Below, piece by piece: positions 1-59,821 of a DNA stretch of 64,000 nt. Each line of letters begins with the position of its first letter. The stretch's first letter is position 1. The DNA is taken from assembly GCA_030280995.1 (NCBI GenBank), contig JASXTE010000005.1, positions 23,814,001 to 23,878,000 on the forward strand, written 5' to 3'. The notes under the pieces are model-generated. The model saw only the letters and a list, made by a program, of their open reading frames with translations, did not search any database and was not told where the DNA came from. A program made the translations under genes and the position numbers. Source of the stretch: Hemileia vastatrix. Its lineage: Eukaryota > Basidiomycota > Pucciniomycetes > Pucciniales > Zaghouaniaceae.

Positions 1-849
1 GATTTAGGGTATGGTTCAGTTTACACTTATACCAAAAGATGCATCACTGCCATCAACTCCTTGGAATCTCAACTTCTCACCTGGCCAACAAAAGAAGAGC
101 GACTTGAATCATCTCAGTTTATGCAAGCAGAGGGCTTCCCAGGATTTATTGGTTTTGTTGACGGTACTACTATTCCTTTGAGCCAGAAACCTGCTCAAAG
201 TGGAAACAATTACTTTGACCATAAAAAGAGGTAGATTATTTTTAACTCATTTCATTCTCTTTTAAACTAACACAAACAACTGTATCTTCTTTATGGATAT
301 TCAATTTCCATTCAGCTTATATGTGATGTTAAAAAAAAATTATATCATTTTTTTCTGGCTATCCTGGCTCATGTCATGACTCCTACGTTTTCCAAAGAAT
401 GCGAATTTCAAATGAACCTAAAAAATTCTTTGATGAAGATAAGTATCTTCTTGCAGATTCTGCTTATGTGAATGGAAAGTATGTACTTCCTGCTTTTTGG
501 GGAGCAGCTTCAGAAGACAGTAAAAATTCCAAGTTCAACAATTATTTGGCAAAGTCAAGAGTCTGTATAGAACATTCTATTGGAATCTTGAAAGGCCTTT
601 TTTCTAGTTTAAGGGAATTAAGAAGTCCTCTTAGAAATAAATCTGAAATGGAGGCGGTGATCAACTGGATTCTGTGTTGAACTATACTTCATAACCTACT
701 TGCTGACCTCAAAGTTCAATGGTTAGAGCTGTATGAAGATGAACAATTTTATTCACCTCTGACTATATCCAACACTTCTATTTCTCAATCAACTAGTATA
801 AGGGCAAAAATTCTTCCAATAACACTCCAAAATTTTTCAACACAATTTT
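1..849 (+). pseudogene. Harbinger DDE transposase remnant (copy B)
   Basis: Partial DDE_Tnp_4-type transposase. The first 234 bases carry the end of exon 1, including the first catalytic Asp in GFVDGTTIPLS, and end at a donor after KKR as in copy A. An intron of about 65 nt follows. Exon 2 is damaged: the block before position 399 that holds the second catalytic Asp (GSCHDS in copy A) reads with stops and a frameshift. From 399 the frame is clear again and includes the region of the catalytic Glu (RVCIEHSIGILKG). TGA replaces a Cys codon at 678-680 (ILC then stop), and the stop used by copy A is lost. N-terminal half is outside the window. Confidence 0.85.
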
Positions 850-1128
850 ATTTTTTTTTCATACTCTTCAAAAGAGGAATTTGCATGTTTTATTCACTGA
901 GAATGGTAATTTTTTTTGCATATTTATTTTGTTTTTGAATTTGCTGTTAAAGTCTTATTTTTATATCTCTCTGTGTTTTATTTCATCAACTCAACATGAA
1001 ATTTCATATTTTCTGAAAACACATATTTTTTCAGTCGCTCTCTTTTTTTTCTTCACTCATATCTGTTTCCTCTTCTCTTCTTACATCACTCAAACAATTT
1101 CAATTCTATTTCTTTTTTCTCAACTCAT

Positions 1129-2080
1129 CTCTCCAGGTAAGTCATTTTTTCTTTTTTACTTAATTTTTTTCTAATTTTTTTTTTTGGTTTTTTTAAAGTG
1201 CTTTTTTTTAATTTTATAGGTAAAATTAACCTTTTTTTACTCTCTCCCTTCCCTCTTTTCTCTCATTCATCCTATTCTTTATCCCCCCTTGGCCTGGGCT
1301 TTTTCCCACATTTACGCTCTCCTTGGAATGGATATATCCCCCTTTTCCCCCCTCCTTGGCTCACTCTAACCTCCCTTTTCTCCCTCTTTGGTCTCATCTC
1401 TCCCTTTCTCCCCCTTTTTTGGTGTCCTCACTTCCTCCCATAATTCATTCCTCTCCAACCCTCCTCCAAATCCCCCAAATCCCCCCTCCAAATAACCCCC
1501 AATCCCCCCCCTCCAATCTCAACTCCTATCCCCCCCCCCTTCAATTCCCCCTCCAATTCCCCTCAGTACCCCCCAAACCCCCCCTGAAATCCCCTCTCCT
1601 ATCCCCCTCAAAATTCCCCCAATCCCCCCCTCATTCCTCCTTAACAATATGTTAGAGAATTGTTAAGGGGGAATGAGGGGGGGTAGGAGGTTCTTAGGGG
1701 GATTGGGGGTGTTCTGAGTGGATTGGAGGGGGTGATTGGGGGGGCTCTGAGGGAAGGATTGGGGGGGTTGTGTGGGGGATAGGAGGGGGGTAGGAAGTTC
1801 TTAGGGGGATTGGGGGTGTTCTGAGTGGATTGGAGGGGGTGATTGGGGGGGCTCTGAGGGAAGGATTGGGGGGGTTGTGTGGGGGATAGGAGGGGGATTG
1901 GAGGGGGGGATCGGGGGGTTATGAGGAGGGTTGGAGGGGATTTGGTGGAGGTATTTGGGGGATGTGGGGAGGTTGGAGGGGGGGTTTGTACAAGGGTTTT
2001 GGGGAGGGGGGAGCGGAGTTTGGAGTGGGAAATTGAGGGGAATGGGGAAGGGATAAAAAAAATTCACAGTTTTTTTGAAT
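1129..2080. repeat. C-rich then G-rich foldback tract in copy B
   Basis: A conserved splice donor (CTCCAG/GTAAGT at about 1136) and acceptor (TTTTATAG/GTAAAA at about 1219) bracket a likely 5'-UTR intron of the dioxygenase transcript. Then comes pyrimidine-rich DNA that turns into repeated CCCCC-AAAT units up to about 1640. A short inverted repeat follows (CCTTAACAAT ... ATTGTTAAGG around 1638-1669), and then the complement, GGGG-rich units, to about 2050. A 100-bp G-rich block is directly duplicated (about 1690-1790 and 1800-1890). Single-stranded forms could fold as a long hairpin or G-quadruplexes. Reading frames through it are composition artefacts. Confidence 0.8.
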
Positions 2081-2245
2081 TTTTTTTTTGAATTTTAGAG
2101 AAAAATATTCATCAAGTTCAAGTGAAATAAAAAAAATTCTTATTCATCTTTTGAGAAATTTTTTTTTAATTTAAATTAAGTGAGTTTTTTTTAATGTATA
2201 TATTTGGGTATTTGAAAAGTAACAAATTTTTATGTAGAAAAAAAC

Positions 2246-3429
2246 ATTTCTTTAACTTCAGATTCACCACTTACCTCACTCTCTTCTTCTTTAACTTCAT
2301 TATCATCTTCAAATTCAACTTCTTTTAAATCATCATCTAAAAGATTGACAAAAAATGAACAGTATCGAAATAAAAGAAATTTTAAAAAAAATTCACTTGG
2401 ATCAAATATTTGGCCACATTTCAAAAATCAAGTACTATAAAACTAAAGTTGAAAAAAAACAATATCCAAAAACGTTACCTGAAAATATACATTATTTAAC
2501 TGAAACTGGAGGTGATGAAGTTAAAGCTGTTATTAATAATACTTTCAAAACTCAATTTATTTTCAAAAACCTTTTTTTATTGGTTTACAAGATGAATCAT
2601 TTAATCAACTCTACAATCTTATCATAAAACTCTATCAAATGGCTTTGGTTTGCTTACCTTTAAGGAATAAGAATTTGTTGGGTGGTATTATGATTGTTAT
2701 TGGATGGAGACCTGGATTTGATAAAGGTTTTTCTCTTGGTATGATTAAAAAAATTTCTGGATTTTTTAATATCATATTACTGAATTTAGTTATATAGGCA
2801 TATATTCTTTACTCAGATCTTTATCTAAAGCTGAATTAGATAATGATTTTCAAAAATGGAATAAATTACCTTCAATTAATTCATTTCTTTCTCTTTGACT
2901 TAAAAAACTCTTCAATAAAGCTTTTGAAAAAAATCATGAATTTGCTACGAGACTTGGAATACCAAATCGGTGCAACTCTGAATGGGAAGATATTAGCAGT
3001 GATTATCTAATTTTTTCAAATGTTATAATCACTCATTCTGGATTTAATAACCGAATTCACACCAACTCAAATGATGCCAATTACCTTACTTATGGAATTT
3101 TCTCATATATTAATCCTATTACTGGACAACCTATTCCATCACCTGCTAAAATTAAAGGACATGGATTTTATTTCCTGTATCATAGGTGTATAATCGATTT
3201 TGGATTAGGAAATGGAATCATCAAAACAGTTTGGAGTTCTTCTTACAATAATCACCAAACCACAAAGGCTCCTCCATGTTTGGAATCTTTTCAAGACTTC
3301 ATGTATTTCGGTTGCTCTTTCCAGACCAGTCAAAAGTTAATCCAACAAATAAACAAGTTAAAAAAAGAAGAAAAAGGTAATAAATTTAAAAATTCTTTAG
3401 GTAAATCTAAAAAGTATGGGGATTTGTAG
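2246..3429 (+). pseudogene. Tet-like 2OG-Fe(II) oxygenase remnant (copy B)
   Basis: Aligns over its whole length with the intact gene of copy A. The start codon is ATT instead of ATG, there is a frameshift near 2550, and stops occur downstream (for example a TGA near 2898). The 60-nt intron is present (GTATGA at about 2738 to TATATAG at about 2798) and here contains an in-frame stop, which supports its being a real intron. The core still reads RIHTNSNDANYLTYG, IDFGLGNGII and NHQTTKAPP. The residue after HT is Asn, not the Asp of copy A, so the HxD iron motif may be lost. Not functional. Confidence 0.8.
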
Positions 3430-4148
3430 AGTCACCAAATATTTAATATTCTTCCATAATTTTTTTATAAATAAATCTGATATGTCACTTTACTAAAATA
3501 AATTAATGAGCCAATGACCTTTGGTTGTATAAAAGGTAATCATGACAAAATTAATTTTTTTCATGGGTTTCCTCTAGCCTATACCTGTTGAAAGTCCCAA
3601 ACTTAGTTTCTAGACTTGATCTGCATTTTGGCATGAGGTATTGTCATTACTTTAAAAGTAGTAGATTTGAAATATCTTATTTATATATTAATTAATTTAT
3701 GTAATTATATTAAATTTTGGTGACTTTCACCCTTTACTTCAATAAAATGCAGGGGAGGGTATTGCCAATATTTTAAATCTGACATGTGAAATTGATGACT
3801 TAAAAAATTTGGTGGTACCCACCCCTTGTTTCAATAAAATTCAAGGGGAGGTATTGCCAAATTTTCAAAAGAGATATAGAATTTTAATGACTTAGTAGTA
3901 TTTAGATAAGAGAACTTATTGACTTGAAAGTAAAGATAGAAAAATTGTATTATATTTTCAAATTTTTGTCAAAAAAAAAGTATAAGCTAACTTATTGACT
4001 TGAATGTAAAGATAGAAAAATTGTATGATATTTTCAAATATTTGTCAAAAAAAAAGTACTATATTCAAGACCTTTTATAAGTCAGAATATAAGAAAATAT
4101 TACCAAAAAGAAATCAAACAGAATTAATTTAACTGGAAAAACAATTTA
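3430..4148. repeat. Intergenic hairpin repeats between convergent genes (copy B)
   Basis: AT-rich spacer between the two convergent gene remnants. It carries two copies of a module with a CCCC-rich arm, a CAATAAAATGCA-like loop and a GGGG-rich arm (about 3725-3775 and 3815-3865): CACCCTTTACTTCAATAAAA then GCAGGGGAGGGTATTGCC. The same module lies at this place in copies A and C. A second short repeat (GACTTGAA.GTAAAGATAGAAA, near 3920 and 3995) follows it. Confidence 0.7.
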
Positions 4149-5447
4149 TCAATTGAAAAGGTCAAGCAATTTTTTAATGTCCTCATAAGATTGGCAATTT
4201 TTTACACATTCCATAATGAAATATTTTTTTAAAAAACTTTCTTGTTTTTCCAATTCATAAGTAGCCATTTCTCTTTGAAATTGACGGTCATTTAATCTTT
4301 TCATATGCTCTGCCTCAATTTTTTTTTCTTCCAAATCTAAGGCTTTCTGATCTTTCCTTAGCATATGATCAAACTTCATCTTCTCAAAGTCAAGGGCATT
4401 TTTTGCAATACATCTTTTTGCTACAATAAGAGAAATAAAAAAATAAGTTAATGAATAAGATATATAGTAAACAAATCTTACTTATATCTTTTTTTTCAAA
4501 ATAATCCTCAAGGAAGCCAATTGAGCTTGTTGAAGTATTACCACGTTTTAAAAGTTGGTTCAAGTTCATTGAAATTGAAGGTTGTTTCTTTAGTTTGGAG
4601 TTTGAACAAGAGGCTTCAAGAAGTTCATCTAAAGCAGCTTCTAAAGCGGGATTCACATTTCCAGAATCAAGATTATTTAATGGAGTTTGAGTTTGAGTAG
4701 GAGGAGACTAGAAAGAAAGATAAATTTAGAGAAGAATTGAAGAAAAAAGAAAAAGTAAACATACATTTAAAATTTGGGGCTCTGAGGATTCAGATCTGCT
4801 GTGATATAATTTTTCTTCTTGATAGTCAGGATCATCTTCAGCTGAACTATGGTTAGATGGTGGAGGGGATTGATCTCCTTCATGTAAAGGTGTGTTGGGA
4901 GGATTATAGGAAGTTTTGGATCCAGAGGGTATATCCTTAGTAGTAATGTGTAGAAAACAATGGTTTACATCAACTCGGGAGCCAAAAGATTATCCATTTC
5001 CTCATAGAAAGGACACATGACATTGAGCTTTTTGGAAACAATAGTAATTCCAATCTCCAAATCATCATCATCAATACCAAAGCCAGTTTCATTTGCAGCA
5101 TGATGAGCCTTTTTATATTTTGATTGATAACTCTTAAATCTCTCCTTCATTTGTTAAGGATTGATATTGATTCTCCCCCTTGTTTTCTTCCTTACTTCAT
5201 TGGCCATCAATAAGTAGCCATTAACCTTTGAAGAAGGTGGACATCCAATATGAGTGGACTTTTCACATCCAAAACATGCATCATAATTTGATTTTATTTT
5301 AAGGAAGTTGATTAGGATGAGATAATCATCCTTTTTTAGCTGACCTGACTTTGATTTTTCAGGTGTGGGGCTTGCTTTACAAGGAGACTTTTGTGACAAA
5401 GAAGATTTTTGAGTTACCTTTTGAGATTTGGAATTTCTGGGAGGCAT
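4149..5447 (-). pseudogene. Myb/SANT-like accessory protein remnant (copy B)
   Basis: Same three-exon gene as copy A. It starts MPPRNSKSQKVTQ at 5447 and ends with the coiled-coil tail IKKLLDLFN at 4149. A TAA interrupts INPKQMKERF near 5153 (Lys codon expected), and a frameshift changes NLFGSRVD to NLLAPELM near 4985. The donor and acceptor of both introns are still recognisable. The DNA-binding region LKKDDYLILINFLKIKSNYD is intact in sequence. Two lesions only, so this copy died fairly recently compared with E and F. Confidence 0.85.
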
Positions 5448-5784
5448 TATAAAACTGGCACATAACAAGAAAATAGATTAAGAGGTAGAAGAAATAAGTA
5501 AAAAAGAATGTAAACATGCCTGGTCAAAATGTTGTAATAAAATGTTGAAAATGTTAGGAAGGGGTGTGTGCCAAGGATTTATGGGTAGGGAGTGAGGAAG
5601 ATCAGTGTGTCAAATGTGACAGGGATGGGGTAAGAAAAGAAGGGATGTTGTGGCCAACATGTGGTTGTGAAAAAAATGGGATAAAAGTGCTGATTTGAGG
5701 TCATAACTGACACCCTTTTTTGAAATAAGTGACTTTTTTGCAAAATTTAAGTGCTGATTTGGTTTGAAAATCCGCACCTAACTT

Positions 5785-5815
5785 AAGTGCGTATTTTCCA
5801 GAACTGAAAACCCCT
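5785..5815. repeat. Right terminal inverted repeat of Harbinger B
   Basis: Degenerate copy of the family-A TIR, including the CCGCAC...TTAAGTGCG subterminal palindrome (5771-5792) and CCAGAACTGA. AAT follows at 5816-5818. Confidence 0.75.
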
Positions 5816-8200: not shown

Positions 8201-8369
8201 TAATTCATGATGGTGAAATATCAGAGGATGATACTTATCATGTAAATACAAATGTTTGTAATTCTTTTGCTTTTATTGGTAATAAAGATTTAGTTCCAAG
8301 TTATTCTGCTGCTCCTGCCACCATAGCAACTACACAAATTTCACTCTCAAATTTGTTGATTGAAGATGT

Positions 8370-9280: not shown

Positions 9281-9284
9281 ACCC

Positions 9285-34826: not shown

Positions 34827-34880
34827 AGGGGTATCAATGTTGACCGATCTGTAATTAAATTAATTGCGGAAAATAATCTT
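34827..34880. repeat. Left end of Harbinger C
   Basis: TIR followed by the subterminal pattern TTAATTGCGG; the element D end at 52925-52973 carries the same motif order. Confidence 0.8.
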
Positions 34881-35193
34881 CATACCAAAATTATCTTCTG
34901 CAATTATTTTCGCTAATAATTGGGTTATTAGACACTTTACGTGTCAATGTTCACCTCTTATCCATCATTTTTTTACTCAATTTTTCATAACCACATCTTG
35001 GACAACTTTCTGTCATAACCACATCTTGACCTACTTTGTGCCATAACCACATCTTGGAATACTCTCTGGACATGGCTTCTACCTTGCTGCACACTCACAT
35101 TCTCATCCCATCCTGTCCATTCTATCCACTCAGAACCCCTCACTATCTCATCTGCTTGTTTCTGCTCCGTTTCATCTTCATTTATATTTTAAC

Positions 35194-36597
35194 ATGCCTT
35201 GTCGTCCTAGATCTTCTCAAAGGCAGCCATAACCCAGTTGTTCTTCAAATCCCACTACTCCCTCTTTCCCCCGCTCAGCTGAGAAATCTAAGACTTTTCA
35301 ATTAAAAAAAGATGATCATCTCACTCTTATCAACTGGCTGAAAACCAAATCTAACTATGATTCTTGTTTTGGTACTGAGTATTCAACTAAAGTAGGATGG
35401 CCCCCAGCATCAAAATTTAATGGCTATCTTTTAAATGGCAAATGAATTACGGAATAAGACCAAGGGAAGGATTAATCTTTTGCCTAAACAGATGTCTGAA
35501 CGCTTCAAGAATTACCAAGCCAAATACAAGAAGGCAAAGGCTCTTTCATCTTCCACTGTTTTTGGGGTTACCGACATTGATATAACTAAGGGTATCAAAT
35601 CCATAGATGATAAACTTGAATCTTTATGTCCTTTCTTTAAAGAGATGGATGCAATTTTTGGAGAGTGAGCCGATGTTAATCCTGTAAACATTTTGGATGG
35701 AGAAGATCTTATCTCTGAACATGATGTTGAGGCAAATCTTTTCCCATCCTGTTTGTCCACTCAAGCCTCCCCTCATTTGAATGAGACAAATCTAGATAGC
35801 TTTTCTGTAGATCCTATAAGTGATTTAACCCAACCAAATCTAACTCAGGTCTGTCTCTTTTTTCTTTTATCTTATCATTTCTATTTTTTATTTACTTATG
35901 TTTTTCATATTTCTTAAAAGGCTGACGAACAAACCCAGAATCCTCAATCAACTGAGTCTGAAGGTAGTGACAGTGATGAGGAGGAAAATATGACCCTGAA
36001 CAAGAAGTGTAGGGCTTCATGTAGTCTAAATTTCCACTCACAAAGAAGACGAAAAAGTGATACTTCATCACAAACCCCTTTTTCATCTATGGAACAATTT
36101 TTAGAGAAACATGATGCTGGTAAGTGATACCATACCTCTTATTACTTTACTCTACTTTTCTTCTACTTTATATTAATTTTTTTACCACTCTAGAGTAAGT
36201 AGAAATTTCTAAAGAGACTCTAAGCTTTGAAAAGAAGAAATACAATCTCTCTTTAAGGAGGGATGATAGGCTACAAGATTTGGAAGAGAGGAATTACAAG
36301 CTCTCTTTACGGAAGGATGATTGGGCCCAAGATTTGGAGTATAGGAAGTAAGAGATCTCTTTATGGAAGGATGATCAGGCCCAAGATTTAGAGGAGAAGA
36401 AGATTGAGTTAACTCTAAGTATTAAAAAATCAAAAAAAGAGGAGAAAACACTTGAACATCAAAACCTATTAGAGCAGATGAAATATAAGTTTGATCATGA
36501 AGAGAATTCCAAAAAGAAAGATTTCTTGATAGAATGTGTTAAAGCTAATAAATCTGTTGAGGAAATTGAACGTTTAAAGAAATTATTGGATGACTAG
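35194..36597 (+). pseudogene. Myb/SANT-like accessory protein remnant (copy C)
   Basis: ATG at 35194, in the same position as in copy A. TAA near 35230 and a one-base insertion near 35427 (LL then MANELRNKTKG) break exon 1, and a TAA near 36349 breaks exon 3. FQLKKDDHLTLINWLKTKSN and KTKGRINLLPKQMSERFKNY are the DNA-binding block. Introns at about 35849-35920 and 36120-36194 have GT-AG ends. Exon 3 repeats a Glu/Lys-rich unit (LRRDDRLQDLEERNYKLS) three times before the coiled coil and LKKLLDD. This triplication is specific to the C subfamily. Confidence 0.85.
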
Positions 36598-36729
36598 TTT
36601 GTTTTATTTCTCTCACACTTCAACTGTTCATATTTATTTGTACATAAAATTTACAATAATTTCCTGTATTTCATTACTCTATCAATCATTACTTGAATTT
36701 TCGTATTTTAATGTTAAATATTCTTTTTT

Positions 36730-37160
36730 TAAGTAAAATTTTCATGTCTCCTTTGAAAATTTGACAATTTTTGAAGTAAGGGATGGGTATCACAAAAATT
36801 CTTTCATGTCATGAATCTTGAAAGTCTTATATGAAACTTTGGCTTTACTACCCCCTGAATTTTACTGGTATTCCCAAAATTCTTCCATGTCAAGAATTTC
36901 ACAAGTCTTATAAGAAATTTTGGCAAAACCCCCTATGGATTTTATTGAAGTAAGGGACGGGTATCACCAAAATATTTAGAAGTTAAAAAAATTCTATATC
37001 TGTTTTAAAAAATTGGCAATACTCTCCCCTGCATTTTGTTGAAGCAAGGAGTGGGTATCACCAAAATTTTTCTAAGTCATCAATTTCACATGTCAGATTT
37101 GAAAATTTGGCAATACCCCCCTCCTGCATTTTATTGAAGTAAGGGGTGGAAGTCATCTAA
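36730..37160. repeat. Four intergenic hairpin modules (copy C)
   Basis: Modules with TTTGGCAATACCC.CCCCTG, a CATTTTATTGAAG loop and AAGGGGTGGGTATCACCAAA at about 36840-36885, 36925-36980, 37010-37070 and 37100-37150. The arms pair across the loop. They separate the convergent SANT and Tet-like genes. Confidence 0.75.
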
Positions 37161-37491
37161 ATTTAATATAATTACATAAATTATTAAATAAATATCTAAT
37201 ATATATTAATTTCCCTAGTTTAAAGTAATGACGATCCCTCAAGCCAAAATGCAGATCAAATCTAGAAACAAACGTTTGGGACTTTCCACAGGTATAGGCT
37301 AGAGGAACCTCATGAAAAAAATAAATGTTATCATGATTACCTGTTATACAACCAAAAGTCATTGGCTCATCACTTTACTTGAGCAAATTGATATATAAAA
37401 AATATTTATTAAAAATTTATGAAAAAATTAAAAAATTTCGATGACAACTCTAATCCCCATACTTTTTGGATCTAGATAGAGTTTTTTTAAA

Positions 37492-38080
37492 TCAATTAAA
37501 TTTACCTTCTTTCTTAACCTTGTTGATTCTTTGAATCAACTTATGACTGATTTGAAATGAGCAACCAAAATTTGTTAAATCTTGACAGGATTCCAGACCA
37601 GGAGGAGCTTTGGTCGTTTGATGATTATCCTTAGAAGAATTCCAAATAGTTTCAATGATACCATTTCCCAAACCAAAATCATTGATGCACCGGTGGTCTG
37701 GAAAGTATAAACCATGTCCTTTGATTTTAGCTGGAGATGGTATTGGTTGGCCAGTTATTGGATTGATATATGAGAATATACCAAAAGTAAGAAAATTGGT
37801 GTCATTCCTATTGATATGAATCCTATTGTGGAATCCAGAATGAGTGATAATAACATTAGAAAATAAAAGATATTTGTGGCTGATATCTTCCCATTCGGAG
37901 TCACACCAATTTGGTATTCCAACTTTGGTTTCAAGTTCATGATTTTTTTTAAATGCTTTATTATAGAGCTTTTTGAGTTGAAGAGCAAGAAAAGAGTTAA
38001 AGGAAGGTAGAGTGTCCCATAAGCAAAAATCTTCATCTTTTTGAGCTTTAGTGATATTCTTGAGCAATGAATATATGCCT
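37492..38080 (-). pseudogene. Tet-like 2OG-Fe(II) oxygenase, C-terminal half (copy C)
   Basis: 190 open codons matching residues about 195-380 of the copy A protein: FNSFLALQLKKLYNKAF, IPNWCDSEWEDIS, NRIHINRNDTNFLTFGIFSY, NDFGLGNGIIETIWNSS, NHQTTKAPPGLE and FGCSFQIS. The position of the HxD Asp is Asn (HIN), as in copy B. The N-terminal half is missing; beyond about 38090 the sequence is unrelated. Whether the C subfamily ever had the longer N-terminus cannot be told from this window. Confidence 0.8.
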
Positions 38081-38164
38081 ATATAATTGGAATGCCTAGA
38101 TAATAATCAGATAAGAGTTTCAGAATCCTTATCCTCTAAATATGCAATATAAAAATGTGAAATA

Positions 38165-38530
38165 AGATAAGTGAAATTTGGAAAAAAGGCTCAACTCCAA
38201 GGGTAAAAATCTCAGAAACCACTGAACCTAACTCAAAACTGTTTGTGGTAAATGAGAGATATGCTTTAGTAGAATCTTCAGTTAAAGGACATGTGATTTA
38301 AATAAACCTAACCCTAATTTGTTACATAAAAAATAGAAATAAAGATTTAAATTTGAAAAAAAGGGCTCAACTTTAAAGGTCAATATCTCAGCAACCACTG
38401 AATCAAATTCAAATCTGTTTGTAGGAAACGAAAGGTAGCCTTCAGGAGAATCTTCAGTAAAAATAAAATTAGATTTGAATAAACCTAACCCTAATTCCGA
38501 GTCTGATTTTCAAAATTTTACAAAAACTTG
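38165..38530. repeat. Tandem duplication of about 175 bp in copy C
   Basis: GGCTCAACT, ATCTCAG.AACCACTGAA, CTGTTTGT.G.AAA, GAATCTTCAGT.AAA and AAATAAACCTAACCCTAATT appear in order at 38187-38320 and again at 38363-38500. Copy G carries one unit (27480-27620, other strand). Confidence 0.8.
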
Positions 38531-38599
38531 AAAAGTGGTAATGAAGATGAGATCAAAAGGAGTTTAATAAGTTCACTTTTATCCAGATAAAAGTTATAC

Positions 38600-39330
38600 A
38601 TATATTTAAGTATGAAGTTTTCATAAAAGGAATATGATATCATATAGATATGAAAAAAGGAGATGAAACATACCTTGATTAAAAAGTAGGAAAAATAGAG
38701 TGAGAAAGATTGATGTTGGAATTGTGGGGAAATTGAATATGGAGTAAGTGAAATGCATAAAAAATGTGCAATATATTTGTTTCAATGAAATGGAGCCAAA
38801 AAAAAGTGAAATAGGGGAAAGGGGGGATAATGACCATGCCAAGGAAGGATGAAGAGTAGGGTGATGGAGCTAAAAAAGAAAGTAAAGAGGGAGAGAAAAA
38901 AAGGTTAATTTTACCACTGAAATCAAAAATAACCACTTACAAAAAAAATTTAGATAAAAAAAATAAAATAAACAGAAAAAAAACAAAAAAAAATTATAAT
39001 TAGTAATCAAAAAATCAAAAAAAGAATAAAATGACTTACCTGGAGAGATGAGATGACAAAATAAATGAAACCAAATTGTTTGAGGGATGTTGGAGGAGAA
39101 TAGGAAAAAGATATGAGTGATGAATGGAAAAAAAAATCACTGACAAAATATGCGATTTCAGAAAATATGTGATTTCATGTTGAGCTGGTGAAAGAAAACC
39201 ATTGAGCCATCCAAAAAAAAGATATTCACCGTAAATTCCAAAAAAAAAATGAATATGCAACAAACCAAAATACCAAACCAAGTGAATAAAGTACACAAAG
39301 AGGACATTTGGAGAGTACAAAAAAATAATT
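38600..39330 (-). other. Transposase/dioxygenase spacer of copy C
   Basis: C/T-rich (minus strand) block, then the conserved intron acceptor (TCAGTGGTAAAATTAACC, about 38915) and donor (CTCTCCAGGTAAGTC, about 39040), as in copies A, B and G. Long frames here are low-complexity. Confidence 0.6.
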
Positions 39331-40578
39331 TAAGTTGCTGGTGAAGAGAAATGTTGGAGAGTAATAGGCATAATGACAGAGCGTATGCTGGTTGAATGAA
39401 TGTTTTGTGATTCAAGGGAGGGGAGAGCCGGTGCTGGTTCAGGATCCTCTTCTCATAAAGATCATTCCACTCATCCTTTAAATCAGCTAGGATATTGTGG
39501 AGTATAATGCAAGTCATGATCCAATGATTTGCAGTTTTGATCTCCAATTTTTTTTGAAATCGGATTCTGAACTCCCGAAGACTAGAAAATTGTCCCTTTA
39601 AAATACCTATAGCATGTTCAATTTGTACTCTTGATTGGGAAAGGTGATAATTAAAGGCAGTTTTGGGGTCACTTTCTAAACTTGCACCATGTAAAGCAGG
39701 TATAATGTACTTTCCACTTGCATATTCTGAGTCTGCAAGGAGGTACTGAGATTTGTCAAAGTATGAGTCAGGGGTTTGAGAAATCCTCATTCTTTGGAAG
39801 ACAGAAGAGTCATGACATGAGCCAGGGCAGCCACTATGAAAAGCAATAAATTTTTTATTGACATTGCATACAAGTTTAACGGCAATAGAGTATCTAGAAA
39901 GAAGATAAAAAGTTAGTTTATGAAGGATGAGAGATCGGAGAATATTTTGAAGAAACCTTTTTTTGCAATCAAAATAATGGTTGCCATCATGAGCAGGCTT
40001 TTGACTCAAAGGTATAGTTGTGCCATTAACAAATCCTTCACAGCCAGGGAAACCTTCAGCTTGCATTACTTGAGAGGATTCAAGTCGCTGTTCTGGAGTT
40101 GGCCAAGCAAGTGTTTGAGACTTGAGGGAAAGGATAGCAATCATACAGCGCTTTGTGTATAATATCACGGTACCATATCCTATGTTAAAGAGATTATCCA
40201 AACGTCTTACAACAGCACCGTTTCCATTTGAGCCAAAGCGGCATAGTGCAACAGCAAGTTGGATGGCAGGGTTATGCTGTTTGTTATGAAAGATAGGATG
40301 ATCAGAGATGAGTTGATCAAGTTTGAAGAAAGAATCGGGAGAAGTTCTAAAAATTTGGGTGAAGTTTAAATGAGGAATGTTGAGAATGGAGGCCAGTTCA
40401 TTTTGGGGATCATGATAAAGATTTGGCCCCCTGGTGATGATGTAACGCTTTTTGGAAAGAAAACACATATAAGCTAAAGCATCTTCCAAATCAGAGTCAG
40501 ATTTATAGTAAAGAACTAAAAAAAAGTAATAGCATTCATTGTTGAGTGAAGTAGCTTCCTAGTAGAGAGGTGTTTCAT
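39330..40578 (-). pseudogene. Harbinger DDE transposase, catalytic mutant (copy C)
   Basis: ATG at 40578, TAA at 39330. A T-run insertion near 40535 shifts the frame in the N-terminus; from 40489 there are 443 open residues. The first catalytic Asp is Asn (GFVNGTTIPLS, where A and B have GFVDG). The second Asp (GSCHDSSVF) and the Glu (RVQIEHAIGILKGQFSSLRE) are kept. A 63-nt intron (39894-39956, GTTTCTTC ... TTTCTAG) sits at the same place as in copy A and happens to be open in frame. A late frameshift precedes the conserved end MPITLQHFSS. It cannot catalyse transposition. Confidence 0.88.
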
Positions 40579-40845
40579 TGTTGCCGGTGGAAGGGTTATG
40601 TGATGAGGGAAGTGGGAATTCACCACCAAATGTGCAGTTGGGGTGTGTAGAAAGAAAAAAAACTTAAGTGTTTGCCACCAAAATTAAGTGTGTTCATAGA
40701 GTGAGGAAAGACTTAAGGATGGCATCAGCAATTATGAGTCATGTGACTTTCTTGCAAATCCATCATGGATGAGATGAGTTTGAGATCAGGAATTAGGAAT
40801 GGAAATTGGGGTATAAGAGGTGGGATAATGCATTATTGTGGATTC

Positions 40846-40877
40846 CTTATCCACTAGCCCTGGCGCTAGTGGATAAG
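40846..40877. repeat. Perfect 13-bp hairpin near the right end of Harbinger C
   Basis: CTTATCCACTAGC (40846-40858) and its complement GCTAGTGGATAAG (40865-40877) with a 6-nt loop. It lies within 115 bp of the transposon end, the zone where family A has its own palindromes. Confidence 0.85.
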
Positions 40878-40960
40878 AATCTTCCGCAATTAATAATGTC
40901 TGAGCCCGGAAAAAAAATTCCTGATCCCTAATTGCGGATCCCTGAACATTGATACCCCCT

Positions 40961-47282: not shown

Positions 47283-47642
47283 AGAGGATGTCAGTTCTGG
47301 AAATTCCACACTTAACTTAAGTGTGGATTTGAACCAAATCAGCACTTAGATTTTGCAAAAAAGTCATTTATTTCAAAAATGGGTGTCAGTTATGACCTCA
47401 AATCAGCACTTTTTTCCCAATTTCTTACACAGCCACATGTTAGCCACATTATACCTTCCTTTCCCACCCTGTCCCTTTCACATGTGACACACTGACCTCC
47501 ATCCCCTCATCAATCCTTGGAAAATACCCCTCACTGATATTTGAAAACTTTTATTGCAACATTTTATCCAGGCATGTTTTTCCGCTTGTTTTTTTAGGTT
47601 TTCAAAATCTTAATTTCTTTTTTGTAACATACCAGTTTCATA

Positions 47643-52973: not shown

Positions 52974-53213
52974 ATTATGTTAATGAAGTACTATATGATG
53001 GCTTAGCATCTTTGTTGTGGATATCTACTAATTAAAATTTAGCTGACATCATGACAAAATCACTTGGCAAGATAATGATTCAACAGTTCCTACATACTTT
53101 GAAAATACAATAGGTATTTTGTATGGTTGAGGGCGGCGGTGTTGAGTATCGACCTGTTAGTTGTTAGAATGTTGTAGAAGATTCTAGTAAATCATGTAGA
53201 TAGATATAACAAT
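52974..53213 (+). mobile_element. Second Copia fragment: pol 3' end and LTR start
   Basis: ISTN stop NLADIMTKSLGKIMIQQFLH (about 53022-53110) is the C-terminus of Copia RNase H. A purine tract (GAGGGCGGCGG) then leads into TGTTGAGTATCGACCTGTTA at 53140, a typical Copia LTR start. Harbinger A interrupts the LTR at 53213; the LTR may resume at 59822. Confidence 0.7.
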
Positions 53214-53320
53214 AGGGGGTGTCAGTTCTGGCAAATCCGCACTTAAATTAAGTGCGGATTTCAAACCAAATCAGCACTTACAAATCAGCACTTAAATTTT
53301 GCAAAAAAGTCACTTATTTC
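53214..53320. repeat. Left TIR and subterminal palindromes (copy A)
   Basis: TIR 53214-53245. AAATCCGCACTTAA and TTAAGTGCGGATTT form a perfect palindrome at 53233-53261. GCACTTA recurs at 53239, 53274 and 53288. Likely binding sites for the transposase or SANT protein. Confidence 0.9.
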
Positions 53321-53584
53321 AAAAAAGGGTGTCAGTTATGACCTCAAATCAGCACTTTTTTCCCGTTTTTTTTCACAACCACATTTTGGCCACAAAACAT
53401 CCCTTCCTTTCTTACCCCATCCCTGTCACATGTGACACACTGACCTTCCTCGCTACCTACCCATCGATCCTCGGCACACACCCCTTCCTGACATTTTCAA
53501 TATTTTGACCAGGAATGTTTACATTCTTTTTTACTTATTTCTTCTACTTTTTAATCTTTTTTCTTGTTATGTGCCAGTTTCATA

Positions 53585-54899
53585 ATGCCTCCCAGACATT
53601 CAAAATCTCAAAAGGTAACTCAAAAATCTGCTTCATCACAAAAGTCTCCTTGTAAAGCAATCCCTACACCTGAAAAATCAAAGGCAGATTCAGGTCAGCT
53701 TAAAAAGGATGATTATCTCATCATAATCAACTTCCTTAAAATAAAATCAAATTTTGAAGCATGTTTTGGATGTGAAAAGTCCACTCGTATTGGATGTCCA
53801 CCTTCTTCAAAGGTTAATGGCTACTTGTTGATGGCCAATGAAGTAAGGAAGAAAACAAGGGGGAGAATCAATATCAATCCTAAACAAATGAAGGAGAGAT
53901 TTAAGAGTTACCATTCAAAATATAAAAAGACTCATCATGCTGCAAATGAAACTGGCTTTGGTATTGACAATGATGATTTGGAGATTGGAATTACTACTGT
54001 TTCCAAAAAGCTCAATGTCATGTGTCCTTTCTATGAGGAAATGGATAATCTTTTTGGCTCCCGAGTTGATGTAAACCCTTGGTTTCTACACGATACTACT
54101 AAGCATATACCCTCTGGATCCAAACCTTCCTATAATCTACCCAAAACACCTTTACTTGAAGGAGATCAATCCCCTCCACCTTCTAGCCATAGTTCAGCTG
54201 AAGATGATCCCGACTATCAAGCAGAACAATTATATCGCAGCATATGTGAATCCTCAGAGGCCCAAAACTTAAATGTATGTTTACTTTTTGTTTTTTCTTC
54301 AATTCTTCTCTGAATTTCTCTTTCATTCTAGTCTCCTCCTACTCAAACTCAATCTCCATTAAATAATCTCAATTCCCGAAATGTGAATCCCACTTTAGAA
54401 GCTGCTTTAGATGAACTTCCTGAAGCTTCTTGTTCAAACTCCAAACTAAAGCGTCAAGCCTCAACTTCAATGAACTTGAACCATCTATTAAAACGTGGTA
54501 ATACTTCAACAAGCTCATTTGGCTCCCTTGAGGATTATTTTGAAAAAAAAGATATAAGTAAGTTTCATTTACTATATATCTTAATCATTAACTCATTTAT
54601 TTATTTATTTCAATTTAATTTTCTCAGCAAAATCAACTATTGCGAATAATGCCCTTGACTTTGAGAAGATGAAGTTTGATCATATGCTAAGGAAAGATCA
54701 GAAAGCCTTAGATTTGGAAGAAAAAAAATTTGAGGCAGAGCAGATGGAAAGAGTAAATGACTGTCAATTTCAAAGAGAAATGGCTTCTTGTGAATTGGAA
54801 AAACAAGAGAGTTTTAAAAAAAAAGATTTCATTATGGAATGTGTTAAAAATGGCCAATCTTATGAGGACATTAAAAAATTACTTGACCTTTTCAATTGA
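53585..54899 (+). CDS. Myb/SANT-like DNA-binding accessory protein of Harbinger A
   Basis: 395 residues in three exons: 53585-54274, 54332-54557 and 54628-54899. Introns GTATGTTTAC ... TTCTAG (57 nt) and GTAAGTTTC ... TTCTCAG (70 nt); both joins keep the frame. The start is the first ATG (MPPRHSKSQK). A basic Ser-rich N-terminus of about 40 residues leads to a trihelix/SANT-like domain at about 45-150: LKKDDYLIIINFLKIKSNFE, CFGCEKSTRIGCPPSSKVNG, KKTRGRININPKQMKERFKS. Exon 2 is acidic and Ser-rich; exon 3 is a Lys/Glu-rich coiled coil ending IKKLLDLFN. In PIF/Harbinger elements such proteins bind the transposon ends and bring the transposase into the nucleus. It is convergent with the dioxygenase gene. 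Family assignment by pattern only. Confidence 0.85.
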
Positions 54900-55609
54900 T
54901 AAATTGTTTTTCTAGTCAATTTAATTTTGTTTGATTTCTTTTTGCTAATATTTTCTTATATTCTGACTTATAAAAGGTCTTGAATATAGTACGTTATTTT
55001 TGACAAATTTTTGAAAATATCATACATTTTTTCTATCTTTACATTCAAGTCAATAATTTTGCTTATACTTAAAATTTGAAAATATAATAAAAAATTTCTA
55101 TCTTTACTTTCATGTCAATAAGTTTGCTTATCTAAATACTTCTAAGTCAATAAAATTCAATATCTCTTTTGAAAAGTTGGCAATACCCTCCCCTGCATTT
55201 TATTGAAACAAGGGGTGGGTACCACCAAATGTTTCTAAGTCATCAATTTCACATGTCAGATTTAAAAAATTGGCAATACCCTCCCCTGAATTTTATTGAA
55301 GTAAAGGGTGAAAGTCATCAAAATTTAATATAATTACATAAATTAATTAATATATAAATAAGATATGTCAAATGTACTACTTTTAAAGTAATGACAATTA
55401 CTCTAGCCAAAATGCAGACCAAATCGAGAAACAAAAGTTTGGGACTTTCCACAGGTATAAGCTAGAGGAACCCCATGAAACAAATTAATGTTATCATGTT
55501 TACTTTTTATACAACACAAGGTCGTTGGCCCATTACTTTAATTTCATAAATTGAAATATCATATTTATTTATTATAAATTTATGGAAGAATATTAAATAT
55601 TTGGTGACT
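54900..55609. repeat. Convergent spacer with hairpin modules (copy A)
   Basis: Two modules: 55177-55228 (TTGGCAATACCCTCCCCTG, loop CATTTTATTGAAA, CAAGGGGTGGGTACCACCAA) and 55270-55323 (weaker right arm). The GACTT.AAAGTAAAGATAGAAA repeat lies upstream. The site suits a two-way transcription terminator. Confidence 0.75.
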
Positions 55610-56797
55610 CTACAAATCCCTATACTTTTTAGATTTACCTAAAGAATTTTTAAATTTATCACCTTTTTCTTCTTTTTTTAACTTGGTTATTTGTTGGATT
55701 AACTTGTCACTGATCTGGAAAGAGCAACCAAAATGCGTGAAGTCTTGACAAGATTCCAAACCTGGAGGAGCCTTTGTGGTTTGGTGATTATCGTAAGAAG
55801 AATTCCAAACTGTTTTGATGATTCCATTTCCTAATCCAAAATCGATTATACAACTATGATCCAGGAAATATAATCGATGTCCTTTAATTTTAGCAGGTGA
55901 TGGAATAGGTTGTCCAGTGATAGGATTAATATATGTGAAAATTCCATAAGTGAGGTAATTGGTATCATTTGAGTCGGTGTGAATTCGGTTATGAAATCCA
56001 GAATGAGTGATTATAACATTTGAAAACATTAGATCATCACTAATATCTTCCCATTCAGAGTCGCACCAATTTGGTATTCCAAATCTCGTAGCAACTTCAT
56101 GATTTTTTTGAAAAGCTTTATTGAAGAGTTTTTTAAGTCGAAGAGCAAGAAATGAATTAAATGAAGGTAACGTATTCCATTTTCGAAAATCATTATCTAA
56201 TTCAGCTTTAGATAAAGATCTGAGTAAAGAATATATGCCTATTTGAATTAAATTCAGTAAAATGATATTAAAAAATCCAGAAAAGTTTTTAAACATACCA
56301 AGAGAAAAACCTTTTTCAAATCCTGGTCTCCATCCAATTCCAATCATGATTCCACCCAACAAATTCTTATTCCTTAAAGATAAGCGAACCAAAGCCATTT
56401 GATAGAGTGTTATGATGATATCACAGAGTTGATTAAATGATTCATCTTTTAAACCATTAAAAGAATGGGTTTCGTAAATAAGTTGAGGTTTGAAACTATT
56501 ATTAATAACAGCTTTAACTTCATCACCTCCAGTTTCATTTAAATAATGTATATTTTCAGGTAACATTTTCGGATATTTTCTTTTTTTTTCAACTTTAGTT
56601 TTATAGTACTTGATTTTTGAAATATGGCCAAATATTTGATCCAAGTGAATTTCTTTTTTTAAATTTCTTTTATTTCGATACTGTTCTTTTTTTGTCAATG
56701 TTTTAGATGATGATTGGAAAGAAGTTGAATTTGAAGATGATAATGAAGTTAAAGAAGATGAGAGTGAGGTAAGTGGTGAATCTGAAGTTAAAGACAT
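55610..56797 (-). CDS. Tet/JBP-like 2OG-Fe(II) oxygenase carried by Harbinger A
   Basis: 395 residues if unspliced, 375 if the in-frame 60-nt intron (56239-56298, GTATGT ... AAATAG) is removed; copy B has a stop in that intron, so splicing is likely. A Ser/Thr-rich N-terminus of about 35 residues and a basic patch precede a conserved block. The catalytic fold lies at about 250-365: H273 and D275 in RIHTDSNDTNYLTYG (HxD candidate), IDFGLGNGIIKTVW, H338 in NHQTTKAPPG (distal His), and FGCSFQIS near the end. This order matches the fungal Tet-like oxygenase domain. TET/JBP enzymes oxidise 5-methylcytosine or thymine in DNA. D275 is Asn in copies B and C, and D278 is the alternative metal ligand. 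Role in the transposon is inferred. Confidence 0.8.
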   Translation of the reverse strand: MSLTSDSPLTSLSSSLTSLSSSNSTSFQSSSKTLTKKEQYRNKRNLKKEIHLDQIFGHISKIKYYKTKVEKKRKYPKMLPENIHYLNETGGDEVKAVINNSFKPQLIYETHSFNGLKDESFNQLCDIIITLYQMALVRLSLRNKNLLGGIMIGIGWRPGFEKGFSLGMFKNFSGFFNIILLNLIQIGIYSLLRSLSKAELDNDFRKWNTLPSFNSFLALRLKKLFNKAFQKNHEVATRFGIPNWCDSEWEDISDDLMFSNVIITHSGFHNRIHTDSNDTNYLTYGIFTYINPITGQPIPSPAKIKGHRLYFLDHSCIIDFGLGNGIIKTVWNSSYDNHQTTKAPPGLESCQDFTHFGCSFQISDKLIQQITKLKKEEKGDKFKNSLGKSKKYRDL

Positions 56798-56939
56798 GTA
56801 TTTTTCTACTTAAAAATTTGTTACTTTTCAAAAACCCAAAATTATACATTTAAAAAAAAACTCACTTAATTTAAATTAAAAAATAAAAAATCCTCAAAAG
56901 ACTAATAAGAATTTTTTTATTTCACTTGAACTTGATGAA

Positions 56940-57760
56940 TATTTTTCTCTAAAATTAAAAAAAAAATCAAAAAAAAAAAAGAAAATCAATAAACTGTTAA
57001 ATTTTTTTAACACTTCCCCATTTCCCTAAATTCCCCTCTCCAAAGCCCTCTCCCACCTCCCAAAAACCCTTGTAAAACCCCCCTCTACCCCCCACCAAAT
57101 CCCCCAAATCCCCCCTCCGAATCCCCCAAATCCCCCCTTTAAATCCACCTCCAAATCCCCTCCAAACCCCCCTCCAAATCCCCCTCCAAACCCCCCTGCA
57201 AATCCCCCTCCAAACCCCCTGCAACCCCCCCAAACACCCCCTTCAATCCACCTCCTTTCACCCCCTCCAAACCCCCTCTAACCCCCCTTCAAATCCCCCT
57301 TGAAACCCCCCCAATACGTCCCTCTAAACCCCCCTAACCTCCCGTCCAACTTACTTAACGATTTGCTAACGAATCGTTAAGTTAATGAACGATTAGCTGC
57401 AATCGTTCATTAGCAAATCGTTAAGTTAATGAACGATTTGGTGCAATCGTTCAATAACTTAATGATTCGTTAACGAATTGTTAAGTGAAGTTTAAGGGGG
57501 GTAGGAGGGATATGAGGGAGGATTTGGGGGAGTTTTGAGGGGGATAGGAGGGGGATTTGGAGGGGGGGTTAGAGGCGGGTTTGGTGGGGATTTGGTGGGA
57601 GGATTTGGGGGATTTGGTGGGGGGTGGAGTGGAATGAGGGGAAGATATGAGGAGACCAAGAAGGGGGAGAAAGGGAGAGATGAGACCAAAGAGGGAGAAA
57701 AGGGAGGTTAGAGTGAGCCAAGGAGGGGGGAATTAGGCAGCCAAATGGGGGAAAAGGGGG
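56940..57760. repeat. C-rich/G-rich foldback with nested palindromes (copy A)
   Basis: 57000-57350 is CCCCC-AAATC units, 57490-57760 is their G-rich complement. Between them 57354-57485 is a set of nested palindromes built from CTTAACGATT, GAACGATT, GCAATCGTTC and AATCGTTAAG. The whole is an imperfect hairpin about 750 bp long lying between dioxygenase and transposase. Copy B has the same layout. Confidence 0.85.
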
Positions 57761-58272
57761 ATGTATCCATTCCAAGGAGAGGGTAAAGGTGGGAAAAAGA
57801 CCAGGCCAAGGGGAGATAAAGATAGAAAAGAGGGAGAGAAAGAGAGAGAAAAAAAAAGGTTAATTTTACCTATAAATTTAAAAACAACCACTTACAAAAA
57901 AAAAAAAAACAAAAAAAAAAACCCAAAAAACCAAAAAAAAAAAAAAAATAGCAAAAAATTAAGTAAAAAGAATAAAATGACTTACCTGGAGAGATGAGTT
58001 GAGAAAAAAGAAATATAAGTGAAATTGATTGAGTGATGTAGGAAGAGAGGAGAAAATGGATATGAGTGAAGAAAAAAAAGAGAGTGACTGAAAAAATATG
58101 CGTTTGCTGAAAATATGTGATTTCATGTTGAGTTGATGAAAGAAAACACAGAGAGAAAAAAAAATAAGACTTTAACAGCAAATTCAAAAACCAAAAAAAT
58201 ATGCAAAAAAATTTACCATTCTCAGTGAATAACACATGCAAATTGATAATTTGAAGAGAAAGAAAAAAAAAA
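57760..58272 (-). other. Conserved intron in the transposase/dioxygenase spacer
   Basis: Minus-strand donor CTCCAG/GTAAGTC (about 57986) and acceptor TTTATAG/GTAAAATTAA (about 57871) are kept in copies A, B, C and G. They probably belong to a 5' leader of the dioxygenase mRNA or to a read-through transcript. The hydrophobic open frame 57870-58241 is not conserved as protein. Confidence 0.6.
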
Positions 58273-59532
58273 TTAAAATTGCGTTGAAAAATGTTGGAGT
58301 GTTATTGGAAGAATTTTCGCCCTTATACTAGTTGATTGAGAAATAGAAGTGTTGGATATAGTCGGAGGTGAATCAACTTGTTCATCTTCATACAGCTCTA
58401 ACCATTGATCTTTGAGGTCAGCAAGTAGGTTATGAAGTATAGTGCAACACAGAATCCAGTTGATCACCACCTCCATTTCAGATTTATTTCTAAGAGGACT
58501 TCTTAATTCCCTTAAACTAGAAAAACGGCCTTTCAAGATTCCAATAGAATGTTCAATACGGACTCTTGACTTTGCCAAATGATTGTTGAATTTGGCATTT
58601 TGACTGTCTTCTGAAGCTGCTCCCCGAAAAGCAGGAAGTACATACTTTCCATTCACATAAGCAGAATCTGCAAGAAGATACTGATCTTCATCAAAGAATT
58701 TTTCAGGTTCATTTGAAATATGCATTCTTTGGAAGACGTAGGAGTCATGACATGAGCCAGGATAGCCAGTGAAGAATGATATAAATTTTTTGTTTACATC
58801 ACATATAAGCTGAACGTTAATTGAATATCTATAAAGAAGATATATTTGTTTGTGTTAGTTTCAAGGAGGATGGAAGGAGTTAAAAATAATCTACCTCTTT
58901 TTACGGTCAAAGTAATTCTTTCCACCTTGAGCAGGTTTCTGGCTCAAAGGAATAGTAGTACCATCAACAAAACCAATACATCCTGGAAAGCCCTCTGCTT
59001 GCATAACCTGAGATGATTCAAGTCGCTCTTCTTTTGTTGTCCAGGTGAGAAGTTGAGATTCCAAGGAGTTGGTGGCAGTGATACATCGTTTGGTATAAGT
59101 GTTAACTGAACCATACCCTAAATCAAAGACATTTTCTAAACGTTTCAAAGCGGCTCCATTACCATTTGAACCCAAACGACATAGTGTGATGGCCAATTGA
59201 ATTGAAGGATGTCGTTGTTCTTTTTGAGAATTATTGTGAAATATGGGATGATTCTGAATAAGCTCAAGCAATTTAAGGAAACATTCCTGAGAAGTCCTGA
59301 ACAGCTGTCTAAAACTGGGTGTAGATAGGTTAAGAAGTGTTTGGATGGTGTACTTGGGGGTATGAAGTACTTGAGGCTTTCTGGGAAGAAGGTAACGTTT
59401 CCTGGCCATTTTTGATAAAACGACAAAATCTTCTTCTAGATCAGAATCAGAATCAGAGTCCAAGAGCAGTTCAAGAGCCATGAAAGTCATTGCTTTATGT
59501 AATTTATCACGATTTGAAAGTGAGGAAGGCAT
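58273..59532 (-). CDS. Harbinger DDE transposase (copy A)
   Basis: 397 residues from two exons, 59532-58895 and 58828-58273, joined in frame across a 66-nt intron (GTAGATTATT ... TTTATAG). The N-terminus MPSSLSNRDKLHKAMTFMAL leads to an acidic run and a helical region (FRQLFRTSQECFLKLLELIQ). Catalytic triad of the DDE_Tnp_4 fold: D190 in GFVDGTTIPLS, D241 in GSCHDSYVFQR, E305 in RVRIEHSIGILKGRFSSL; LADSAY lies between. It cuts the element at its ends and joins it to a 3-bp target. All key residues are present and there are no internal stops, so it is potentially active. The first ATG is supported by copies G and B. Confidence 0.92.
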
Positions 59533-59639
59533 GACTCTTATATGATATGATATGAAGATGTAAGTGATGTACGATGTTTTGAGTTATGAAGTGTTATGCT
59601 GCGGAGTGCTGCGTATGAATGGGATGATGCTGACAAATG

Positions 59640-59818
59640 AGTGAAATGGGACTTGATGGTGAAATCAGCACTTTTGGTTGAGAAAGTGCGGATTTGAGTG
59701 AAATAAGTGACTTATTTCATTTTGAAATCCACCAGTATTGGGGCTAGTGTGTTTTGGAAATCCGCACTTATTTAAGTGCGGATTTGTAAGTGCGGATTTG
59801 CCAGAACTGACACCCCCT
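59640..59818. repeat. Right TIR and subterminal repeats (copy A)
   Basis: TIR 59787-59818. AAATCCGCACTTATTTAAGT and GCGGATTT form a palindrome, and an extra AAGTGCGGATTTG unit is inserted next to the TIR. AAAGTGCGGATTTGAG at about 59680 is another copy of the motif. Confidence 0.9.
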
Positions 59819-59821
59819 AAT

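What the first reader, a model, noticed from the sequence alone, without database searches (positions are those of the whole stretch)
53214..59818. A PIF/Harbinger transposon that carries its own Tet/JBP-like DNA dioxygenase
Seen: one element with perfect 32-bp TIRs and a 3-bp target duplication encloses a DDE transposase, a SANT-like protein and a 375-395-residue protein with a Tet-like 2OG-Fe(II) oxygenase pattern (H273xD, H338, C-terminal FGCSFQIS). The same three-gene order recurs in copies B and C, so the dioxygenase is a stable part of the element. Known: fungal TET/JBP genes have been linked to the KDZ class of DNA transposons; Harbinger elements normally have only transposase plus Myb/SANT. 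Inference: the enzyme removes or alters 5-methylcytosine on the element so it can be expressed or cut, an anti-silencing module built into the transposon.
Basis: partly seen in the sequence, partly recalled or inferred. Interest (0 to 1): 0.95.

Follow-up and report, generated by a model that had tools for sequence, protein, structure and literature searches.

The report
Jumping gene carrying a TET-like enzyme
A DNA transposon in a large, probably rust-fungus genome carries, beside its transposase, a gene for a predicted TET-like DNA dioxygenase that likely strips the methyl marks used to silence it; such elements were described in 2025, but here the enzyme gene appears to have been exchanged between related transposons, and a shortened relative without it has multiplied.

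Summary
Window 53214-59818 is a complete Harbinger element: perfect 32-bp TIRs, AAT on both sides, a DDE_Tnp_4 transposase, a divergent Myb/SANT-like protein and a PF20515 (Tet-like) protein. TET is a stable part: each of the 30 best TET loci fetched from this 748-Mb genome has a companion transposon gene beside it, and TET shows purifying selection between families (omega 0.06-0.22). The concept is not new: Kojima (2025, PMC12730594) described TET+ Harbinger transposons (PHISTA) in rusts and proposed the anti-silencing role. Different here: a 3-bp AWT duplication, supported by paralogous empty sites, where PHISTA is defined by TA; a weak Myb/SANT match in the third protein, where Kojima reports none; and TETs incongruent with backbones (two elements with 85-89% identical transposase carry TETs of 59% identity with saturated synonymous sites), implying TET exchange. 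Old copies lose CpGs massively, also at terminal motifs, consistent with methylation. Against a strictly cis role: 8 of 11 sampled copies of the commonest transposase type share a TET-less deletion junction. Enzyme activity is untested, and an arginine recalled as usual for 2OG binding is not seen.

The parts
53211..53213 (.). left target-site duplication AAT
   Evidence: matches the right copy AAT
53214..53245 (+). left terminal inverted repeat, 32 bp, AGGGGGTGTCAGTTCTGGCAAATCCGCACTTA
53233..53294 (.). iterated subterminal motif AAATC(C/A)GCACTTA: two copies with CpG, two with CAG
53585..54899 (+). third gene, predicted 395-aa Myb/SANT-like protein; proposed exons 53585-54274, 54332-54557, 54628-54899 (GT/AG by eye)
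   Evidence: sub-threshold PF13837
55134..55608 (-). conserved non-coding block 3' of TET with about 93-bp repeats and AATAAA-containing hairpins
55610..56797 (-). Tet-like 2OG-Fe(II) dioxygenase gene, 395 aa, single exon; H273-x-D275, H338
57020..57850 (.). C-rich/G-rich foldback between TET and transposase (arms 57110-57208 and 57526-57624, 78% complementary)
58273..59532 (-). PIF/Harbinger transposase, two exons (58895-59532 and 58273-58828), DDE_Tnp_4
   Evidence: same split in L031
59683..59799 (.). iterated subterminal motif, four CpG-bearing copies at this end
59787..59818 (-). right terminal inverted repeat, identical to the left
59819..59821 (.). right target-site duplication AAT
1..5815 (-). 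copy B, same three genes, 90% identical, truncated by the window edge, TET broken
34827..40960 (+). copy C, a different Harbinger family with the same gene order, AAT duplication, TET broken

Best explanation
Window 53214-59818 is a complete PIF/Harbinger-type DNA transposon that also encodes a predicted Tet-like 2OG-Fe(II) dioxygenase, which likely oxidises 5-methylcytosine on transposon DNA and so would counter CpG-methylation silencing and keep the terminal binding sites usable. Shown: complete ends with a 3-bp AWT duplication; three genes; the same three genes in four families of this genome (one or two loci read per family); purifying selection on TET between families; heavy CpG loss in old copies, including at the iterated terminal motif AAATCCGCACTTA. 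Inferred: CpG methylation of the copies, 5mC as the substrate, binding of the terminal motif by the Myb-like protein or transposase, and relief of silencing. TET probably acts in trans, since copies with a TET-less deletion have amplified. TET genes appear to have been exchanged between Harbinger backbones.
Against: No activity data and no confident fold: AF2 pLDDT 33.5; no homologue among PDB sequences (one search gave two weak, unrelated hits). At position 355, where I recall an Arg in PU-type TETs, His stands in 31 of 31 rows and in 16 of 16; decayed copies C and D have Asn and B Tyr. The main copy has G308R, absent from the other 29 loci, and since its split from B counts 7 amino-acid to 2 silent changes in TET 186-395, one of the 7 (N275D) more likely decay in B and C; TET omega against the recent copy M2 is 0.91. 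138 of 150 scored transposase hits have one same score; of 11 of these that I looked at, 8 share a TET-less junction, so a copy's own TET is not needed for it to amplify. CpG depletion is not special to these elements: the rest of the window has CpG o/e 0.155, below the main copy's 0.37. Methylation itself was not measured.
Confidence: 0.6

Rival explanations
1. The Tet-like enzyme does not erase methylation but writes a further base mark (5hmC-type, CMD1-like or base-J-like) that labels the transposon ends for its own Myb-like protein or transposase, or blocks methyl-readers.
For: Kojima names CMD1 among the nearest solved structures and cannot exclude another activity. The presumed 2OG/cofactor region is unusual: His355 conserved, K342 invariant. 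The iterated terminal motif contains a CpG.
Against: No direct evidence; the CpG decay only shows that methylation-like mutation hits these elements, which fits either reading.
Confidence: 0.15
2. TET is passive cargo that persists because it helps the host or other elements, with no role in Harbinger mobility.
For: TET-less deletion derivatives make up 8 of 11 sampled copies of the commonest transposase score class. TET appears to have been swapped between backbones.
Against: Purifying selection between families and presence in all four families looked at are hard to keep in a mobile element without benefit to it. The one derivative read whole is also without most of the Myb gene and has a frameshifted transposase, so it is non-autonomous in any case and says little about the need for TET in trans.
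Confidence: 0.15
3. The Tet-like proteins of this clade have lost 2OG oxygenase activity and serve as 5mC- or DNA-binding proteins.
For: His instead of the recalled Arg at position 355; a residue other than Asp at 275 in 9 of 30 loci (7 Asn, 1 His, 1 Val).
Against: H273 and D275 stand in 16 of 16 rows and H338 in 15 of 16, down to 51% identity to the main copy (rows chosen for being stop-free); D275N fits CpG decay at ACC|GAC.
Confidence: 0.09
4. Chance capture or assembly artefact.
For: None found.
Against: A second full-length copy (L031), 30 of 30 loci linked, matched duplications.
Confidence: 0.01

Closest known systems
PHISTA, TET+ Harbinger transposons of Puccinia and Austropuccinia (Kojima 2025, PMC12730594)
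   Same: Harbinger transposase, Tet-like gene and third gene in one TIR element; the anti-silencing hypothesis; TET transfer between transposons
   Different: PHISTA is defined by TA duplications, here 3-bp AWT with paralogous empty sites; Kojima found no Myb/SANT in the third protein, here a weak, sub-threshold match. His figures and supplement were not seen, so he may have parsed similar ends differently, and this family may already be in his Table S1
Nuwa / canonical PIF-Harbinger
   Same: DDE transposase, Myb/SANT-like second protein, 3-bp duplication (as described in PMC12730594)
   Different: Two proteins only, no TET; canonical target recalled as TWA, here AWT
TET+ KDZ (Kyakuja, Dileera, Zisupton) transposons (Iyer et al. 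2014, recalled, and as cited within PMC12730594)
   Same: Transposon-borne TET/JBP gene
   Different: Unrelated transposase; the transposase here matches DDE_Tnp_4
CcTET of Coprinopsis, human TET2, NgTET, CMD1
   Same: Tet/JBP superfamily by the Pfam name and by Kojima's comparison
   Different: No sequence-level match found here; activity of this protein unknown

Membership tests
PIF/Harbinger superfamily | DDE_Tnp_4-type transposase with D, D, E | tested here: met
   PF13359 E=6.3e-26 and 3.1e-25 in L031; D, D, E by eye
PIF/Harbinger superfamily | short TIRs and 3-bp target duplication | tested here: met
   32-bp perfect TIR; 12 of 14 insertions with both flanks read have matching AAT or ATT; L004 and decayed copy E do not match
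PIF/Harbinger superfamily | second protein with Myb/SANT domain | tested here: inconclusive
   PF13837 is the only Pfam hit in 4 of 4 third proteins (E 0.0014 to 0.42, all below cut-off); it hit 2 of 5 pieces (main and one of two pieces of C; not the other C piece, the B piece or F). AF2 model poor, pLDDT 40
PHISTA (Kojima 2025) | Harbinger transposase with a TET/JBP gene and a third gene | tested here: met
PHISTA (Kojima 2025) | TA dinucleotide duplication | tested here: not met
   Paralogous empty sites for L002 (in L046 and L070) and for C (in L072) align with no gap at the junction and lack the 3 extra bases that the TA reading predicts
PHISTA (Kojima 2025) | position in the PHIS transposase tree | not tested
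   reference transposases were not fetched
TET/JBP, PU type | Tet-like 2OG-Fe(II) domain | tested here: met
   PF20515 in 16 of 16
TET/JBP, PU type | HxD...H iron triad | tested here: met
   H273, D275, H338
TET/JBP, PU type | 2OG-binding Arg after the distal His (recalled) | tested here: inconclusive
   His355 in 31 of 31 rows; no structure to say which residue takes its place
TET/JBP, PU type | oxidation of 5mC | not testable with these tools
   needs an enzyme assay
TET/JBP, PU type | double-stranded beta-helix fold like TET2/CMD1 | tested here: inconclusive
   AF2 pLDDT 33.5 with a 4-row alignment

The most novel reading that the evidence does not exclude
The TET gene is an exchangeable anti-silencing cartridge: it is swapped between Harbinger backbones together with its conserved 3' block, is kept by selection, and works as a public good in trans, so that a TET-less, Myb-less derivative rides on it and has swept the genome. 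This would be a three-player race of host methylation, TET+ transposon and TET-less freeloader inside one genome.
Probability: 0.35. Interest if true: 0.78.

Novelty: new variant of a known kind. Interest (0 to 1): 0.56.

Why it matters
It extends the 2025 picture of TET+ fungal transposons with a genome-scale case in which selection on TET, exchange of TET between backbones, CpG decay and non-autonomous freeloaders can be seen together. If TET acts in trans on methylated ends, it would be a natural demethylation module maintained by a transposon, and the CpG-bearing terminal motif gives a direct binding test. For a specialist the existence of the element is no longer a surprise; the TET exchange, the 3-bp target and the TET-less burst are.

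Tried and rejected
Tried without result: homologous-protein search with the TET protein (3880 candidates, none E<=0.001) and with alignment A1 (7987 scored, none E<=1); viral contigs (8 pattern matches, none a relative); PDB sequences; AF2 of TET with 4 window rows and of the third protein with 7 window rows, both too poor to use, so no fold search was run. Rfam found only a tRNA. The TIR count and a genome-wide Myb search never returned (server busy), so total copy numbers are unknown. The dN/dS script ended in a division by zero at the Myb pair M-M2; the Myb pairs after M-X were not computed.

Rejected: the TA reading of the duplication (the empty sites are paralogous, 75-84% identical, not alleles); chance capture; copies B and C as proof of a working enzyme (both have Asn275). 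Considered: that the high identity of the 3' block between M and C reflects recent transfer alone; adjacent TET synonymous sites are far more diverged (dS about 1.5), so constraint on the block is likely as well.

Dropped rows and caveats: genome counts are lower bounds because only 105 of 18623, 150 of 10849 and 150 of 10897 candidates were scored. Only 8 of the 150 transposase hits lie within 5 kb of one of the 105 TET hits, 4 of them in the 412.9-bit class; with both lists capped this does not show that TET is absent elsewhere. The direct look covers 11 copies of that class, picked by me from the minus strand: L081 and seven of L082-L091 share the TET-less junction, L083 and L088 have other breaks, L090 is unrearranged over the 501 bases read. 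Only L081 was read whole, so the transposase frameshift is known for it alone. End checks were made on 8 chosen TET loci (L026's right end was not found, so it is not among the 14) plus L029, main, C, E, L078, L079 and L081; L029's right end has one G more. In families X and Y one locus each was read.
Full report
What is there. The element runs from 53214 to 59818 (6605 bp) with perfect 32-bp TIRs and AAT on both sides. On the plus strand lies a three-exon gene for a predicted 395-aa protein; on the minus strand a single-exon 395-aa gene and a two-exon transposase (exon borders by eye). Pfam: PF20515 Tet-like 2OG-Fe(II) oxygenase E=2.1e-31; DDE_Tnp_4 E=6.3e-26; Myb_DNA-bind_4 only E=0.0016 and below its cut-off.

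Copies. The window holds copies B, C, D and E and a fragment F. When the source genome answered (747.6 Mb, 791 contigs), 105 TET matches were scored from 18623 candidates, 82-100% identical, many with open frames. PF20515 gave 150 scored places from 10849 candidates, all over the cut-off, and none in 14 control genomes. Of the 30 best TET loci, 29 have the Myb-like gene and the remaining one (L028) the transposase beside TET; L001 among them is the window copy. L031 is a second full-length copy (6.57 kb) whose TET frame, transposase exons and first Myb exon are open.

Four families. The 30 PF20515 loci fall into four TET types by similarity (sorted by eye). One or two loci per type were read in full: main and L031; C and L078 (Z); L079 (Y); L080 (X). 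All have Harbinger transposase, TET and Myb-like gene. The ends read in M, Z and Y start AGGGGGT.TCA; C has one G fewer at its left end; for X only one end was found.

Target duplication. Both flanks were read for 14 insertions: main, C, E, L002, L003, L004, L005, L011, L020, L029, L030, L081, L078 and L079. Twelve have matching AAT or ATT; L004 (AAT against ATT) and the decayed E do not match. Because the intact ends read ..T|AGGGG, the duplication could also be read as TA. Paralogous empty sites bear on two insertions: the joined flanks with one AWT align with no gap at the junction to L046 and L070 (L002 insertion, 84% and 82% identity) and to L072 (copy C, 75.5%); the TA reading predicts three extra bases there. 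A further candidate for L003 in L066 is too gapped to use. This differs from Kojima's PHISTA, defined by TA.

Exchange of TET. Z and X share a backbone: transposase 0.89/0.85 and Myb 0.87 identity, transposase dS 0.29/0.24. Their TETs are 0.59 identical with pS 0.76, that is saturated. M and Z, with transposase 0.58/0.65 and Myb 0.57, have TETs 0.81 identical. The non-coding block 3' of TET follows TET: 85% over 478 bp between M and Z, while with X and Y only shorter, repeat-containing stretches match. The simplest reading is replacement of the TET region by exchange between elements. Kojima reports TET transfer between superfamilies; here it is between close backbones in one genome.

Methylation footprint. 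Of 54 main-copy CpGs aligned without a gap in B, 10 remain and 29 became CA or TG; of 108 GpC, 80 remain. CpG o/e: main 0.37, B 0.14, C 0.26, D 0.10, E 0.03, the rest of the window 0.155, the flank after 59818 0.69, so depletion is general outside the gene-like flank and the main copy is above the rest, which its youth alone could explain. No clear TCG preference: CpG cytosines with a transition are preceded by T 17, A 9, G 4, C 3 times, kept ones by T 22, A 16, G 8, C 14 times. The terminal motif AAATCCGCACTTA occurs 6 times with CpG in the main copy; in E and D all six are lost with C>T or G>A changes, in B both are kept. In 16 end pieces plus L031 the count is 42 CCG, 6 transition-lost, 29 CAG, 3 other. 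The iron-binding Asp codon sits at ACC|GAC, a CpG; Asn is found in B, in C and in 7 of 30 loci, His and Val once each. That methylation causes this is inferred from passages on the rust Austropuccinia psidii, not measured here.

TET-less burst. A search with transposase exon 2 gave 150 scored hits, none with a stop, 138 with the same 412.9 bits. One of that class read whole (L081, 3915 bp, ATT/ATT) keeps both ends, a five-fold repeat of the region with the start of the Myb gene, and the transposase with a frameshift in exon 1; TET and most of the Myb gene are gone. Seven of ten further copies share its junction, two have other breaks and one is unrearranged over the stretch read; at least 4 of the 138 have a TET nearby. 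So in this sample the commonest form is a non-autonomous derivative. It argues against TET acting only in cis; it does not show that TET is dispensable.

Catalysis. H273 and D275 are in 16 of 16 and H338 in 15 of 16 TET pieces, K342 and H355 in all 16; decayed window copies C and D have Asn and B Tyr at 355. I recall an Arg at this place in other PU-type proteins; this was not tested. AF2 failed for lack of depth.

Prior work. Kojima 2025 (PMC12730594; abstract, passages, Results parts 1 and 2 of 3, Discussion part 1 of 2 and figure legends seen) covers TET+ Harbinger, PU-type TET, transfer and the anti-silencing hypothesis. Paper searches listed no title or abstract start describing another TET+ Harbinger; apart from the three papers named here, the listed papers were not opened. 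Supplements were not available, so whether this very family is in his Table S1 is unknown.

Odds. After re-checking the calls, the confidence of the main reading was lowered from 0.62 to 0.60, because the commonest transposase class includes TET+ copies and CpG depletion is general in the window; the other odds moved by 0.01 or not at all.

Noticed in passing
55134-55608 (-): Non-coding block 3' of TET: 87-93% identical between M and C in four 60-base windows and 71-83% in others, against 72-83% in the TET coding windows; contains about 93-bp repeats that can fold as hairpins with AATAAA in the loop. Over 70 distinct units, 278 of 1050 pair cells fail on the TET-sense strand and 432 on the other.
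   Followed up: partly
L081:2906-6820 and L082, L084-L087, L089, L091: Recently amplified TET-less 3.9-kb derivative; the copy read whole has a five-fold repeat of the region carrying the start of the Myb gene.
   Followed up: partly
57020-57850: Long C-rich/G-rich foldback upstream of TET with a palindromic AT-rich core; partly present in copy B too. Possibly quadruplex-forming.
   Followed up: no
55973-55976 (codon 275 of TET and the base before it): The catalytic Asp codon begins at a CpG, so methylation-type decay tends to remove the iron ligand.
   Followed up: yes
7942-10979: Copia-like retrotransposon remnant: gag_pre-integrs (weak, below cut-off) and RVT_2 E=1.3e-51.
   Followed up: no
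12222-12318 (+): A tRNA gene, 97 bp, likely with an intron; ARAGORN's selenocysteine label is doubtful.
   Followed up: no
45965-47286 and 52395-52808: Further remnants of the third gene that resemble copy C more than the main copy, so the window holds remains of several Harbinger families.
   Followed up: no
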